A program made the translations under genes and the position numbers. A model generated the notes under the pieces. It was not told the origin of the DNA and ran no database searches. It worked only from the letters and a program-made list of their open reading frames with translations. Of a stretch of DNA of 10,706 bases, positions 454 through 10,518 are shown in pieces; the first letter of the stretch is position 1; every line of letters starts with the position of its first letter. The DNA is from SAR116 cluster bacterium (GTDB lineage: Bacteria > Pseudomonadota > Alphaproteobacteria > Puniceispirillales > Puniceispirillaceae), in assembly GCA_004213025.1 (NCBI GenBank), contig SHBC01000031.1:1-10706 (forward strand). Direction: 5' to 3'.

Positions 454-454
454 C

Positions 455-493
455 CTGTTCCCTGGGCCTGTTCCCTGGCCCTGTTCCCTGGCC
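455..493 (-). repeat. Three tandem 13-bp repeats upstream of the esterase start
   Basis: Plus-strand units are 455-467 CTGTTCCCTGGGC, 468-480 CTGTTCCCTGGCC and 481-493 CTGTTCCCTGGCC; the first differs at one base. On the minus strand each unit reads GGCCAGGGAACAG, so each carries an AGGG Shine-Dalgarno-like core. The unit nearest the gene ends one base before the ATG at 453. Because 13 is not a multiple of 3, a change in copy number would disconnect the upstream ATG at 495 from the gene but leave the proximal ribosome site intact. Confidence 0.9.
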
Positions 494-599: not shown

Positions 600-1484
600 G
601 TGGACACGCATATCGTGACCGTTCCTTCCCCGATGCCGGCACCTGTTACGCGGTTTGCGCCAAGTCCGACTGGCCTGCTGCATCTTGGTCATGCCTATTC
701 GGCACTTGTCGCGTCGCGGTTTGGTGATGGCTATATTCTGCGGATTGATGATATCGACCATACGCGGTGCCGCCCCGAATTCACCGAACAGATTTACCGC
801 GATCTCGAATTTCTGGGTCTGCCATGGCGCGGTGAACCGGTATTCCAGAGCCACCGGCTTGCCGCCTATGCGGACGCGCTTGCCAGCCTGCGGGCGCGCG
901 ATCTTGTCTATCCCTGCTATCTGACACGGGCCGAGCTTGCCGAGGTGCTGTCCGCCCCACAGGAAGCGCCGGTGGCGACAGACCGCGCCATCCCGGCGGC
1001 CGAAGCGGAACGCAGGTCCGAGGCGGGGAAATCGCCTGCCTGGCGTCTGCGGACCGACCGCGCACTCGACCTTGTCGGTGATCTGACCTGGACGGATATT
1101 GCCGCCAAAGCCGAGGCTGGCCGGCACCGGCCTGTCAACATGTCGGCGCATGGCGATGTGGTTCTGGCGCGGCGCGACATCGGCACGTCCTATCATCTGT
1201 CGGTTGTCGTCGATGATTCGCTTGACGGTGTCACCCTTGTCACCCGCGGCGCCGACCTCGAGAACTGCACGCATGTTCATCGTCTGCTGCAGGCGTTGCT
1301 GGATTTGCCCTCGCCAGCCTATTTCCATCACGATCTGGTGCGTGATGCCGCCGGCAGCCGTCTTGCCAAGCGTCATGATTCGGAAAGTATCCAGCAGCTT
1401 CGCAAGGCGGGCCAGAGCGCCAACGACATTGCCGCATCCCTGCCACCGGTGCCGGAATCATTACGTTTCGGCGTCGATTTTTGA
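600..1484 (+). CDS. gluQ: Glutamyl-queuosine tRNA(Asp) synthetase (GluQRS)
   Basis: This is a truncated paralogue of glutamyl-tRNA synthetase. The family activates glutamate without tRNA and attaches it to queuosine in the anticodon wobble position of tRNA(Asp). The 294-residue length fits a GluRS catalytic domain without the anticodon-binding domain. Visible are the class I ATP motif HLGH (28-31) after FAPSPTG, the active-site stretch around LARRDIGTSYHL (189-200), and the KMSKS-like RLAKRHDS (254-261). The usual E in the RIEDID segment is D here (RIDDID). Only one cysteine (Cys106, YPCYLTRAE) remains where the E. coli enzyme has a CxC zinc pair, so the zinc site looks incomplete. The start is uncertain: GTG at 600, GTG at 615 or ATG at 633 are all in frame, none with a good ribosome site, and homology begins only after 633. 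A CTATAT at 554-559 could be its -10 box. Family confidence is high. Confidence 0.9.
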   Translation: MDTHIVTVPSPMPAPVTRFAPSPTGLLHLGHAYSALVASRFGDGYILRIDDIDHTRCRPEFTEQIYRDLEFLGLPWRGEPVFQSHRLAAYADALASLRARDLVYPCYLTRAELAEVLSAPQEAPVATDRAIPAAEAERRSEAGKSPAWRLRTDRALDLVGDLTWTDIAAKAEAGRHRPVNMSAHGDVVLARRDIGTSYHLSVVVDDSLDGVTLVTRGADLENCTHVHRLLQALLDLPSPAYFHHDLVRDAAGSRLAKRHDSESIQQLRKAGQSANDIAASLPPVPESLRFGVDF

Positions 1485-1564
1485 AATTCAACTAAATGTT
1501 TTTGTGTGTTTTTTTACGAATCATTACCCGCTGCGGTTTTTTTGCTTAAAAGCCGGTGGGCAGG
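1485..1564. other. AT-rich non-coding stretch downstream of gluQRS
   Basis: This stretch has long T tracts (near 1500-1517 and 1542-1549) and no convincing coding frame. The only dyad before the second T tract is a very short CCG-CTG-CGG (about 1530-1538), too weak for me to call a terminator. It ends where the candidate sRNA promoter begins. Confidence 0.5.
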
Positions 1565-1593
1565 CTTGACGGAGTGAATCTTCGGGCGCATAT
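1565..1593 (+). promoter_or_regulatory. Promoter of the candidate sRNA
   Basis: CTTGAC at 1565-1570, a 17-base spacer, then GCATAT at 1588-1593. This fits the alphaproteobacterial housekeeping promoter pattern CTTGAC-N17-CTATAT, as I recall it, with a perfect -35 and 4 of 6 bases in the -10. Transcription would start near 1599-1601, just at the base of the first hairpin. It is positioned to drive the short RNA ending at 1667. Confidence 0.55.
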
Positions 1594-1599
1594 ACCCCG

Positions 1600-1667
1600 T
1601 GCACGGCGTATTCGTCGTGCGTTTCCTCCCTAAACTCGGCCGTGAGATTTCTCACGGCCTTTTTTTT
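1600..1667 (+). ncRNA. Candidate trans-acting sRNA of the alpha-r8 (MmgR-like) family
   Basis: A compact non-coding unit lies between gluQRS and moaA. A first hairpin has GCACGGCG (1601-1608), loop TATT, and CGTCGTGC (1613-1620), 8 pairs with one G-U. Then comes TTTCCTCCCT (1622-1631), a short AAACTC spacer, and an intrinsic terminator (1638-1667). The order of hairpin, exposed UUUCCUCCCU and terminator hairpin, about 70 nt long, matches what I recall of the alpha-r8 sRNAs. Their Sinorhizobium meliloti member MmgR (about 77 nt) limits polyhydroxybutyrate accumulation, and their central decamer is described as invariant. The CU-rich single strand would target GGGAGG-like ribosome sites. Both hairpins and the decamer are direct observations; family membership is inference from motif and architecture. 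The alternative is an unrelated short RNA or a leader transcript with a C-rich linker. Confidence 0.65.
1638..1667 (+). terminator. Strong rho-independent terminator
   Basis: A perfect 9-bp stem GGCCGTGAG (1638-1646) / CTCACGGCC (1651-1659) with loop ATTT is followed directly by eight T (1660-1667). It terminates the candidate sRNA and would also stop read-through from gluQRS. Confidence 0.93.
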
Positions 1668-1696
1668 GTCAATCGACCCCCTATTCACCGGTTGAA

Positions 1697-1799
1697 GTGC
1701 CCATCATCAGGCACCCGGGGGTGCGACGTGTCGTTCCTTGCCAAGCCGGAAGCGTGGGGCGTAGCATGATGATGTATACAGGGGGAGGACACCATCATG
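1697..1799 (+). promoter_or_regulatory. Structured leader of moaA with the start codon in a stem and the ribosome site in the loop
   Basis: GCATGATG (1764-1771) and CATCATGC (1793-1800) form a perfect 8-bp inverted repeat. The ribosome site GGGGGAGGA (1781-1789) is in the 21-base loop and the moaA ATG (1797-1799) is in the 3' arm. Upstream, GTGCC (1697-1701) pairs with GGCAC (1710-1714), while GCACC (1711-1715) can instead pair with GGTGC (1720-1724). The loop of the first hairpin holds CATCATC (1702-1708), which is perfectly complementary to GATGATG (1768-1774), the segment that would mask the start. These overlapping pairings suggest a switch between a closed and an open start. I could not match it to the known Moco riboswitch, so ligand or function is unknown. 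The pairings are observed; regulation is inference. Confidence 0.4.
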
Positions 1800-2828
1800 C
1801 CGTTGACAGATGCCGCGCCGGTGACAAAGCCGGACAAGCTGATCGACCCGTATGGCCGTACTGTCGACTATCTTCGCGTGTCGGTGACCGACCGATGCGA
1901 TTTCCGCTGTGTTTACTGTATGGCCGAGGAGATGACCTTCCTGCCGAAGGCGGAGCTACTGACACTTGAGGAACTTGAAACCCTCTGCCGGCGATTCATG
2001 GCGGCAGGTGTCCGCAAGATCCGTCTTACCGGCGGTGAGCCGCTTGTCAGGCGCAACATCATGCAGCTGATCCGCGCCCTTGGCGCCGAGGTCAAGACCG
2101 GTGAGCTTGACGAGCTGACAATCACCACGAATGGCAGCCAGCTTGTCAAAATGGCGGATGATCTGTTTGATGCCGGCGTACGGCGGGTGAATATCTCGCT
2201 CGACACGCTCGACCCGGACAAGTTCCGGCAGATTACACGCTGGGGCGATCTTGACAAGGTTCTTGCCGGGCTTCGCGCCGCGCAGTCGGCCGGTCTTGAT
2301 GTGAAGATCAACGCTGTTGCCCTGAAGGGCGACAATGACACCGAGCTTGGCGACATGCTGGCCTGGTGCGGCGATGAAGGGTTCGACATGACCATCATTG
2401 AGGTCATGCCGATGGGCGATATCGGCACCGAAAACAGGCTCGACCAGTATCTGCCGCTGTCACGCGTCCGCGCAGACCTGTCAAAGCGGTTCACCCTGAC
2501 CGACATTCCGTTCCGCACCGGCGGCCCGGCCCGCTATGTCAAGGTTGAGGAGACCGGCCGCAAGCTTGGCTTCATCACGCCGCTAACGCACAATTTCTGT
2601 GAAAGCTGCAACCGGGTGCGGGTGACCTGTACAGGCCAGCTTTATATGTGTCTTGGTCAGGATGACAATGCTGATCTGCGACGCGCCCTTCGTGATGGCG
2701 GCGAGCCGGCGCTCGACGCGGCGATTGCCGAAGCCATCGGGCGCAAGCCGAAGGGGCATGATTTCATCATCGACAGGCGCCACAGCGACCCTGCGGTCAG
2801 CCGGCACATGAATGTCACAGGCGGCTGA
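1797..2828 (+). CDS. moaA: GTP 3',8-cyclase MoaA (molybdenum cofactor biosynthesis)
   Basis: MoaA is a radical-SAM enzyme that, with MoaC, converts GTP to cyclic pyranopterin monophosphate, the first step of molybdenum cofactor synthesis in the cytosol. At 343 residues it has normal family length and all the hallmarks. The N-terminal SAM cluster motif is CDFRCVYC (Cys34, Cys38, Cys41), followed by TGGEPLVRR (78-86). The second, GTP-binding 4Fe-4S cluster is CxxC-x13-C (Cys268, Cys271, Cys285). The protein ends in the conserved C-terminal GG needed for activity. The start is ATG 1797 with a very strong GGGGGAGGA site 7 bases upstream. No other moa, mog or moe gene is adjacent, so the gene stands alone here. 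It faces the convergent MFS gene. Confidence 0.97.
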
Positions 2829-7293: not shown

Positions 7294-8475
7294 TCACTCG
7301 GCATCTACAACCACGGCAAGGCCGCGCTGCCTGAATTCGCTCAGCTTCTTTATCATCGCCTCACGTTCCAGCGCCCGCGGCGCGTCAAGCCCAGGCACCG
7401 TGACCTCGATCATCGGCCGCGGATAGAGATGCTGGGGATAAGCAGGACGGGCATAAACAGGTCGATCCGGCATGGCCGCCAGCGGTGCCCTGTTCTCACT
7501 TCTGTTCTCGCTTCCATTCTCGCTTCTGTCCTCACTTAAGCCCTCACCTCTATCCTCCGGCAGCCGAATGTCGCCATTTGCCGGCTGATCCACCGGCGCC
7601 TCCGGTGAAACCGGATCAGTCGGGGCCAGATCAGCCGGGACCGGATCAGTTGGGGCCAGATCAGTCGGGGCCAAATCAGTTGGGGCCGGGGTGGGCTGCT
7701 CTTCCCGGGCCATGGCATGCTCGGGCGGCGTCTCATCCGTTTCATCCTGCCGTGTGTCGCCAGTCATCACGCCATTGGTCGCGTGGTCGGTCGACGCGCC
7801 ATTGCTTCTGGCTTGGCCTGTGGATGGCGGCGATGACTCAACGCCGTCGCCAGATGCCGCCACACCGTCAAATTCAGGTTCAGGCTGTGTCGGAACGAAT
7901 GCCGGTGAGGCGATGCTGACGGGATAGAGGGCGAGCTGGCGACGCTTTGGCGACTGCACGGGCTGGTCCGTGACCTGCCCTGTCGACAGGCCGAGAAACT
8001 CGTCGACGAGACGTTCCTGCCAATGGCACGCCTCGATTTCCCACGGTCGCAGATGCCAGGCAAGATTGTCGATGACCACCGGCTTGCCACCCATCCAGCG
8101 CGCCATATCGACCGCGGTCTTGCGGCCGGCGACCTTGGTTTTCTTCCTTGTGATCAGCAGCCTTTCATTGACCGCCTGTGATATGTGAAGCATCTCATGG
8201 GCGATTGTCTCGGCAGCATCGCGGATCCCAAAGGCCGTCGACACGGTCATCTCGAACAGGGTCGGGGCCTTCGTGCCAAGGCTGGATTTCTGCGGTCCCA
8301 GCATGGCCCGCGTCACCGGAACGCGCAGAGGTTCCTTCGTCACGTCAATCAGAACGTTCAGATATTTTCGCTGGCGCGGCGTGAACAGGCGCGCCGCCAT
8401 GTAATTGGCCGCATAGGCCAGAAGCTCCGCCTCGCCGGGAATCGAATCGATTGAATTTACCTCGACCATCATCAT
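7294..8475 (-). CDS. Unrecognised HExxH (zincin-like) protein with repeat-built disordered linker
   Basis: I do not recognise a named family. The 393-residue frame has three parts. Residues 1-170 look globular and contain ETIAHEMLHISQ, a HExxH metallopeptidase motif (His93, Glu94, His97), followed by HLRPWEIEACHWQERLVDEF (141-160), where Glu146 or Glu148 could be the third zinc ligand. Residues about 185-330 are polar, acidic and low in complexity, including the pentapeptide run APTDLAPTDLAPTDP and the run SEDRSENGSENRSENR. The last 60 residues (from PDRPVYARPAYPQHLYPRP to the end) look folded again, ending in a charged helix. There is no signal peptide, so it is probably cytosolic. Three ATG codons occur in tandem (8475, 8472, 8469) with no clear ribosome site. 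It is upstream of psd on the same strand but 153 bp away. SprT-like or phage-type metallopeptidase relationship is possible. Confidence 0.72.
   Translation of the reverse strand: MMMVEVNSIDSIPGEAELLAYAANYMAARLFTPRQRKYLNVLIDVTKEPLRVPVTRAMLGPQKSSLGTKAPTLFEMTVSTAFGIRDAAETIAHEMLHISQAVNERLLITRKKTKVAGRKTAVDMARWMGGKPVVIDNLAWHLRPWEIEACHWQERLVDEFLGLSTGQVTDQPVQSPKRRQLALYPVSIASPAFVPTQPEPEFDGVAASGDGVESSPPSTGQARSNGASTDHATNGVMTGDTRQDETDETPPEHAMAREEQPTPAPTDLAPTDLAPTDPVPADLAPTDPVSPEAPVDQPANGDIRLPEDRGEGLSEDRSENGSENRSENRAPLAAMPDRPVYARPAYPQHLYPRPMIEVTVPGLDAPRALEREAMIKKLSEFRQRGLAVVVDAE
7493..7552 (-). repeat. Five imperfect 12-bp tandem repeats in the HExxH-protein gene
   Basis: Units on the plus strand: TTCTCACTTCTG, TTCTCGCTTCCA, TTCTCGCTTCTG, TCCTCACTTAAG, CCCTCACCTCTA (7493-7552). 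They encode the Ser-Glu-Asp/Asn-Arg type tetrapeptide run. The unit length is a multiple of three, so copy-number change keeps the reading frame. Confidence 0.75.
7613..7687 (-). repeat. Five 15-bp tandem repeats in the HExxH-protein gene
   Basis: Units start at 7613, 7628, 7643, 7658 and 7673 and follow the pattern RRATCAGYYGGGRCC. On the minus strand they encode the pentapeptide run (A/P)PTD(L/P). Differences are few, suggesting recent expansion. The frame is preserved by any copy-number change. Confidence 0.88.
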
Positions 8476-9316: not shown

Positions 9317-9324
9317 TCATGAGT

Positions 9325-10518
9325 ATGCGTCGACTGTGGATATCCTTGATCGCCGGGACGGCCTTGTCCGCGGGCGGGACCGCTTTTGCTGGCGGCTTGC
9401 CCGGATCCAATACCGCGTCGACGGCAACCGCCGGTTCGACCGCGCAGGCCGCCGCCGCGCCGGCAACAACTGTAGCCGAAACAACCGTGGCCGAAACAAC
9501 GGCATCTGCCACAACAACCGGCGCAGCAGGCCAGACTGCCTCGACAGAAATGGCATCGACCGATTCGAACTCGCAGACCGCAAGCGGTGGCGTGGATAAT
9601 GGCGATGTCCAGACAGGGTCCTTTATCGCTATTGAAGATGATCCGCTGATCATCGACGCATCGTCTGTCGTCGATGGCGACGGTGTCGGCAGCATGCAGG
9701 TTCAGTGGCAGATCGCCACCGATGGCACGGATTGGTCGAACCTGTCCGGTGAGATCAGGCAGTCCTTCACACCGCGCGAACGCCATGTTGGCAAACTTCT
9801 GCGGGTACAGCTGTCCTATGTTGACGGTCAGGGCAACCTTGAGACGATTCTCAGCCCGCCCTCCAGCCCGGTTCAAAATGTGAATGACAAGCCGAACGGC
9901 GCCCCGCAACTTGTCGGCGCGGCGCGCGAGGAAGACGCGCTTGTCGTTGACACAAGCATGATTTCCGATGATGACGGCCTTGGCAATTTCTCCATCATCT
10001 GGCAGCGCTCGAGTACGAAGACCGAATGGCAGGCCTTCCCCGAGACGAATGGTGAAGTGCTGCAGCTCTCGCAGCGGCATGTTGGCTACTCATATCGCGC
10101 CGTCGTATCCTATGAGGACGGGCACGGAACCAAGGAACTCCTGGTCACCAGCCCGTCAGAGACGGTGCAGAATGTCGATGATCCGGTTCAGGGCGAAGTT
10201 CTGATCACCGGCGAGGCCACCGAGGGCGAGGTCATCCTTGTCAGCACAAATGGCGTGTCCGATGAAGACGGCATTGCCAGCATGTCGGTTGGCTGGGAAG
10301 CCTCGACCGATGGCCGGAACTGGCGCGCCATTGAAACCGGCGGCGCCACCCAGTTGTCGCTGTCACAGCCGCTGGTGAACAAGCAGATCCGGGCCCGTGT
10401 CGCGGTCGTTGACAGTTTCGGCGTGGAAACGGTGATCTTCAGCCAGGCAACGAATACGGTTCGCAACATCAACAACAAGCCGGCAGGTACAATTTTTGTC
10501 CGGCGTGTTGGCGGCTAG
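9325..10518 (+). CDS. Secreted protein with three tandem 98-residue Ig-like/adhesin-type modules
   Basis: A 397-residue exported protein. The N-terminus MRRLWISLIAGTALSAGG followed by TAFA-GG is a clear Sec signal peptide with an AFA cleavage site. Next is an Ala/Thr/Ser-rich linker (about residues 25-94), then three modules of exactly 98 residues at 9607-9900, 9901-10194 and 10195-10488. Each carries D-x-D-G at its front (116-120, 214-218, 312-316), a W pair in the middle, a VSYxDG-like strand, and closes with NVND, NVDD or NINN. This unit resembles the Ig-like/cadherin-like repeats strung together in giant RTX adhesins of marine bacteria; the acidic DG turns suggest calcium binding. After module 3 only nine residues follow (TIFVRRVGG), matching the seam of a fourth. 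No anchor, RTX nonapeptides or sorting signal is seen. ATG 9319 is the alternative start. Exact role unknown; probably periplasmic or extracellular. Confidence 0.85.
   Translation: MRRLWISLIAGTALSAGGTAFAGGLPGSNTASTATAGSTAQAAAAPATTVAETTVAETTASATTTGAAGQTASTEMASTDSNSQTASGGVDNGDVQTGSFIAIEDDPLIIDASSVVDGDGVGSMQVQWQIATDGTDWSNLSGEIRQSFTPRERHVGKLLRVQLSYVDGQGNLETILSPPSSPVQNVNDKPNGAPQLVGAAREEDALVVDTSMISDDDGLGNFSIIWQRSSTKTEWQAFPETNGEVLQLSQRHVGYSYRAVVSYEDGHGTKELLVTSPSETVQNVDDPVQGEVLITGEATEGEVILVSTNGVSDEDGIASMSVGWEASTDGRNWRAIETGGATQLSLSQPLVNKQIRARVAVVDSFGVETVIFSQATNTVRNINNKPAGTIFVRRVGG
9607..10488 (+). repeat. Three 294-bp coding modules in perfect register
   Basis: Anchor motifs DxDG and N(V/I)(N/D)(D/N) recur at exactly 98-residue intervals, giving unit borders 9607, 9901 and 10195. 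The units have diverged clearly at protein level, so this is an old duplication rather than a recent one. Confidence 0.8.

What the first reader, a model, noticed from the sequence alone, without database searches (positions are those of the whole stretch)
1565..1667. MmgR-like (alpha-r8) sRNA candidate between gluQRS and moaA
A CTTGAC-N17-GCATAT promoter, an 8-bp hairpin, the exposed decamer UUUCCUCCCU and a textbook terminator line up as a self-contained 70-nt gene. From memory of the alpha-r8 family, the decamer is its invariant core and the two-hairpin layout is the same. If confirmed, it places this regulator of storage-polymer metabolism in another lineage and in a new gene neighbourhood.
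Basis: partly seen in the sequence, partly recalled or inferred. Interest (0 to 1): 0.7.

Follow-up and report, generated by a model that had tools for sequence, protein, structure and literature searches.

The report
Marine alpha-r8 small regulatory RNA gene
A well-supported small RNA gene of the known alpha-r8 (MmgR/SisA) family sits after gluQRS in a bacterium related to the marine SAR116 group; the family was known, but in this group it lies at a different genomic address and its textbook link to storage-polymer control probably does not apply.

Summary
Window 1594-1674(+) matches Rfam RF00519 (suhB/mmgR, the alpha-r8 family) at 47.2 bits, above the gathering score of 41. It has a promoter, an 8-bp hairpin, the single-stranded core UUUCCUCCCU and an intrinsic terminator. 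In the window and 27 gluQRS-linked relatives, TTGAC lies upstream in 28 of 28 and two hairpins flank the core in 28 of 28. In the window and three near relatives the core region is 17/17 invariant, against 1/49 just after the terminator. This argues for an independent gene, not a gluQRS tail; no RNA data were available.

Two claims need changing. The family is already reported from nearly all Alphaproteobacteria. The gluQRS site is usual in this group: gluQRS next door in 27 of 30 fetched loci, FGase in 0 of 30, against FGase 24 and gluQRS 0 of 30 in a class-wide sample. PHB control is unlikely: PhaC_N was not found in 3 of 3 near relatives, nor in 11 of 12 relatives. Best mechanism: an Hfq-assisted anti-Shine-Dalgarno repressor. 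The target search was inconclusive. New member of a known kind.

The parts
1565..1593 (+). promoter: CTTGAC (1565-1570), 17 bases, GCATAT (1588-1593)
   Evidence: Read. TTGACGGAG and GCGCATATAC are invariant in the window and 3 near relatives. TTGAC upstream in 28 of 28 gluQRS-linked sequences; CAT begins exactly 17 bases after TTGACN in 23 of 28 (my count from the rows).
1600..1667 (+). alpha-r8 (MmgR/SisA-type) sRNA, about 68 nt; 5' end inferred 7 nt after the -10 box, 3' end at the T run
   Evidence: RF00519 match 1594-1674, 47.2 bits, gathering 41, E 2.3e-7; E 6.9e-9 when only 1485-1800 is searched
1601..1620 (+). 5' hairpin, 8 pairs, loop UAUU
   Evidence: MFE fold; hairpin in 28 of 28 sequences; 27 of 27 distinct 5' segments fold better than their shuffles at z below -1, mean z -3.25
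1622..1631 (+). core UUUCCUCCCU, anti-Shine-Dalgarno seed, unpaired in the fold
   Evidence: Invariant in 28 of 28 aligned sequences; of its 10 bases 10 are unpaired in 14, 9 in 13 and 8 in 1 of 28 folds (my count)
1638..1667 (+). intrinsic terminator: 9-bp stem, 4-nt loop, eight T
   Evidence: 29/30 invariant in window plus 3 near relatives; varied pair types at stem positions
600..1484 (+). gluQRS, usual upstream neighbour in this group; not part of the sRNA
   Evidence: NF004315.1, 293.8 bits, cut-off 250; upstream on the same strand in 27 of 30 fetched loci
1797..2828 (+). moaA, downstream neighbour in some relatives only; not part of the sRNA
   Evidence: TIGR02666.1, 359.8 bits, cut-off 284.05; downstream in 8 of 30 loci

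Best explanation
A stand-alone gene for a trans-acting regulatory RNA of the alpha-r8 family. A housekeeping-type promoter starts an RNA of about 68 nt at about 1600 that ends at its own terminator (inferred from conserved signals). The 5' hairpin and the terminator stem leave UUUCCUCCCU single-stranded (predicted). By analogy with SisA of Caulobacter, this seed pairs, helped by Hfq, with Shine-Dalgarno regions of several mRNAs and represses their translation (inferred). Which mRNAs is not known here; nutrient-uptake and central carbon genes are the likeliest class by analogy. PHB control as in Sinorhizobium is unlikely in this lineage.
For: RF00519 above its cut-off. Core invariant in 28 of 28. 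Promoter upstream in 28 of 28. Two-hairpin fold with open core in 28 of 28. Footprint in 4 near relatives: core 17/17, terminator 29/30, against 1/49 just after it. Varied pair types in both stems. One core copy in each of the 3 near relatives. hfq found in 12 of 12 relatives searched. PMC12559287 passages: SisA represses a TonB-receptor mRNA through this decamer, with compensatory mutations, and its pairing with CrfA is helped by Hfq.
Against: No transcript data. Conserved-target search gave no signal above a control: GGGAGGA sites before ATG shared between two near relatives 8 of 24, AGGAGGA control 11 of 43. 19 of 61 relatives had no match at E 0.001 (stricter filters); 3 of 13 genomes had none, all 3 reached through loci titled SAR116. 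The window's genome is not held.
Confidence: 0.88

Rival explanations
1. The RNA is the processed 3' end of the gluQRS mRNA rather than a separate transcription unit.
For: gluQRS lies upstream on the same strand in 27 of 30 fetched loci. The scan found no strong terminator between the gluQRS stop and the sRNA, and a stretch after the gluQRS stop is conserved, 25/31 invariant.
Against: A TTGAC element upstream in 28 of 28, with CAT exactly 17 bases further in 23 of 28, kept while the surroundings vary. Family members elsewhere sit beside other genes.
Confidence: 0.06
2. It regulates PHB/PHA storage, as MmgR does in Sinorhizobium meliloti.
For: Same family and same decamer; deletion within MmgR's conserved core raised PHB in S. 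meliloti (review passages, PMC8401924). Of 12 relatives, 1 has PhaC_N (G016) and 3 have PHB_acc_N.
Against: PhaC_N not found in 11 of 12 relatives, including the 3 nearest; PHB_acc_N not found in the 3 nearest; no class III synthase above cut-off in 12. Completeness of these genomes is not given.
Confidence: 0.04
3. It acts mainly on the neighbouring moaA.
For: The window's moaA Shine-Dalgarno region holds GGGAGGA (1783-1789), complementary to UCCUCCC of the core (read).
Against: The same site is not kept in the 3 near relatives, and moaA is next door in only 8 of 30 loci.
Confidence: 0.02

Closest known systems
alpha-r8 family, Rfam RF00519 (suhB/mmgR)
   Same: Covariance model above cut-off over positions 1-77; core UUUCCUCCCU; hairpin, open core, terminator
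   Different: Next to gluQRS instead of the FGase gene; 8-bp 5' hairpin with 4-nt loop, where Rfam's consensus has 4 pairs at that place (alignment)
SisA-D of Caulobacter crescentus (PMC12559287, passages)
   Same: Same decamer, described there as an anti-Shine-Dalgarno signature, below a weak hairpin and followed by a Rho-independent terminator
   Different: Four copies there, and no shared promoter motif; one copy found in each of the 3 near relatives here. The sponge CrfA was not sought by homology; exact AGGGAGGAAA sites outside the sRNA number 7 in the 3 near relatives, none shared by all three
MmgR of Sinorhizobium meliloti (review passages PMC7143759, PMC8401924)
   Same: Family, size class (77 nt there), decamer
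   Different: PHB phenotype, NtrC and AniA control there; PHA synthase and PHB_acc_N not found in the 3 near relatives here

Membership tests
alpha-r8 / RF00519 | covariance model score at or above the curated gathering score | tested here: met
   47.2 against 41 bits
alpha-r8 / RF00519 | conserved 10-mer UUUCCUCCCU, single-stranded | tested here: met
   1622-1631, 10/10 unpaired in the predicted fold of the window sequence; invariant in 28 of 28
alpha-r8 / RF00519 | hairpin just upstream of the 10-mer | tested here: met
   1601-1620
alpha-r8 / RF00519 | Rho-independent terminator downstream | tested here: met
   1638-1667
alpha-r8 / RF00519 | linkage to an FGase gene (reported for most species, not required of members) | tested here: not met
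   gluQRS and moaA flank it; FGase within about 1.5 kb in 0 of 30 relatives' loci, though an FGase gene lies elsewhere in 12 of 12
alpha-r8 / RF00519 | small transcript, Hfq-associated | not testable with these tools
   No RNA data; hfq gene found in 12 of 12 relatives
MmgR in function (PHB regulator) | a PHA synthase system to regulate | tested here: not met
   Tested in relatives only: PhaC_N 0 of 3 nearest, 1 of 12 in all; own genome not held
SisA-type anti-Shine-Dalgarno repressor (mechanism) | direct pairing of the 10-mer with target mRNAs | tested here: inconclusive
   Complementary sites before ATG exist in 3 genomes but are no better shared than a control

The most novel reading that the evidence does not exclude
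In the ancestor of this SAR116-like group the alpha-r8 gene moved from the FGase site to the gluQRS site and became a global feast-or-famine regulator of uptake and central carbon genes in bacteria that make no PHA, so that anti-Shine-Dalgarno control of nutrient genes, not PHB control, is the family's core role.
Probability: 0.3. Interest if true: 0.5.

Novelty: new member of a known kind. Interest (0 to 1): 0.3.

Why it matters
It gives a well-supported riboregulator, with mapped promoter and ends, in an abundant group of ocean bacteria. It also shows that the name 'makes more granules regulator' should not be carried over as a function: the RNA and its seed are kept where the PHA synthase was not found. 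The change of neighbourhood (gluQRS 27 of 30 against 0 of 30; FGase 0 of 30 against 24 of 30) gives a handle on how this sRNA family moves.

Tried and rejected
Target prediction. Exact AGGGAGGAAA sites (10 in 3 near relatives, 3 of them the sRNA gene itself) gave no site shared by all three. GGGAGGA-N2-9-ATG sites (45, 32 and 29) include four whose Shine-Dalgarno string and protein recur in all three near relatives (Band_7 protein, TPP enzyme C-terminal domain, TctC receptor, MFS/ATG22-like protein). A fifth shared string lies before a different protein in one genome. Strings shared by two genomes lie before sigma-54, a DctP receptor and a dehydrogenase E1 component among others. But such sharing is no higher than for the AGGAGGA control (8 of 24 against 11 of 43), so I claim no target.

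Idea that moaA is the target: the complementary site is not conserved. Idea of a different Rfam family: the other matches at relaxed E-value lie far below their cut-offs.

Mistakes of mine, mended: three of four FGase queries were a neighbouring reading frame; repeat it with five FGase queries. In one search the labels of the -35 and -10 segments are one base off; the statement on those boxes rests on the alignments. MAFFT misaligned the variable 5' arm, so pairs in that stem were counted from each sequence's own fold, which leans towards structure. Several coordinate guesses failed.

Full report
Observation. The promoter, hairpin, decamer and terminator are present as described. The scan lists the terminator but not the promoter, and its promoter count for the whole window is no higher than in shuffles, so the promoter rests on comparison, not on that scan.

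Identity. cmscan gives RF00519 (suhB, described in Rfam as Makes More Granules Regulator RNA, mmgR) at 1594-1674(+), 47.2 bits, gathering 41, E 2.3e-7; it is the only match above a gathering score in the window. Restricted to 1485-1800, E is 6.9e-9, and the four weaker matches lie far below their own cut-offs.

Lineage. No whole genome is held for the window. The closest MoaA proteins among named records are 79-80% identical: an Alphaproteobacterium MAG (L001) and a Candidatus Puniceispirillum MAG (L002). Among 61 genomes (G002, which holds L002, and its relatives), three carry loci whose MoaA is 94-95% and GluQRS 79-82% identical to the window's: L096 in G038, L098 in G043, L102 in G028. I call these the near relatives. 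All three have gluQRS, the sRNA and moaA in this order.

Independent gene. In the window plus the three near relatives the invariant positions are: core region 17/17, terminator 29/30, hairpin 14/21, then 1/49 after the terminator. TTGACGGAG and GCGCATATAC are invariant in the four. In the window plus all 27 gluQRS-linked relatives TTGAC is upstream in 28 of 28, and CAT begins exactly 17 bases after TTGACN in 23 of 28 (my count; exceptions L084, L099, L103, L105, L107). The three fetched loci without gluQRS were left out of these sets. The fold has two hairpins with the core between them in 28 of 28; all 10 core bases are unpaired in 14, 9 in 13, 8 in 1 (my count). The 5' segments fold better than mononucleotide shuffles in 27 of 27 distinct sequences (mean z -3.25), and both stems show several pair types at a position.

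Distribution and address. In the 61 genomes 42 have a match at E 0.001 and 20 exceed the cut-off; 19 have none (stricter filters). The 18-nt core pattern with one mismatch is in 35 of 61, control 0. In an earlier set of 13 genomes 10 match; the 3 without a match (G011-G013) were all reached through loci titled SAR116. The control genomes of that search include one weak match in Thermus below the cut-off, so hits between E 0.001 and the cut-off can be chance. Of the 30 fetched loci (best match in each of 30 of the 42 genomes; the loci were capped), gluQRS lies upstream on the same strand in 27, moaA downstream in 8, FGase in 0. A class-wide sample of 190 genomes gave matches in 107, of which 86 over the cut-off. 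Of the 30 best loci fetched there, FGase lies within about 1.5 kb in 24 and gluQRS in 0. An FGase gene is present elsewhere in 12 of 12 relatives, and none of those 12 loci shows the core: TTCCTCC occurs in 3 of 12, never followed by the family's next bases. So the usual address differs between the groups.

Function. In Caulobacter the alpha-r8 RNA SisA represses a TonB-receptor mRNA through the decamer and is sponged by CrfA (PMC12559287, passages). In S. meliloti MmgR limits PHB (reviews PMC7143759 and PMC8401924, passages). Here hfq was found in 12 of 12 relatives, whereas PhaC_N was found in 1 of 12 and in none of the three near relatives. PHB_acc_N was found in 3 of 12, none of them near relatives, and no class III PHA synthase passed its cut-off. 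Genome completeness is not given, so absence is provisional. I therefore commit to an Hfq-assisted anti-Shine-Dalgarno repressor of several mRNAs, and reject PHB control as the likely role. Direct target prediction was tried and did not exceed its control.

Literature. Searches for mmgR with formylglutamate amidohydrolase (0 papers), gluQRS with sRNA (1 paper listed, not opened, title on modified ribonucleosides) and alphar8 (8 listed) showed no report of the gluQRS linkage. The library lacks most subscription papers, including Lagares et al. 2016 on the family's distribution, so it may be in print. PMC5913331 was seen in one passage.

Noticed in passing
window 1717-1768: Second conserved non-coding block, upstream of moaA: 42/52 invariant in the window and 3 near relatives, with 1/49 before it. 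It holds CGACGTGTCG, a near-palindrome, and TTGCCA-N18-TAGCAT; likely the moaA promoter or operator. Blast found it only in loci of those three genomes among the loci held.
   Followed up: partly
window 1485-1515: T-rich stretch after the gluQRS stop is unusually conserved (25/31 invariant in 4, against 80/145 in the 3' part of the gluQRS reading frame).
   Followed up: no
G103:C7:54432-55030 and G231:C4:3801090-3801687: Three RF00519 copies within about 600 bases in each of two genomes of the class sample: clustered alpha-r8 genes.
   Followed up: no
L017:1073: TTTCCTCCC followed by a strong terminator-like hairpin in Hwanghaeella grinnelliae; an alpha-r8-like or other anti-Shine-Dalgarno RNA, not scored.
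   Followed up: no
G002, G015, G016, G017, G018, G026, G033, G040: Several related genomes hold three to five places matching the sRNA core with up to one mismatch, while the three near relatives of the window hold one each.
   Followed up: no
window 454-493, 7490-7537, 7610-7687, 9465-9500: Short tandem repeats; three of the four lie inside reading frames without a Pfam match (7297-8475 minus, 9319-10515 plus).
   Followed up: no
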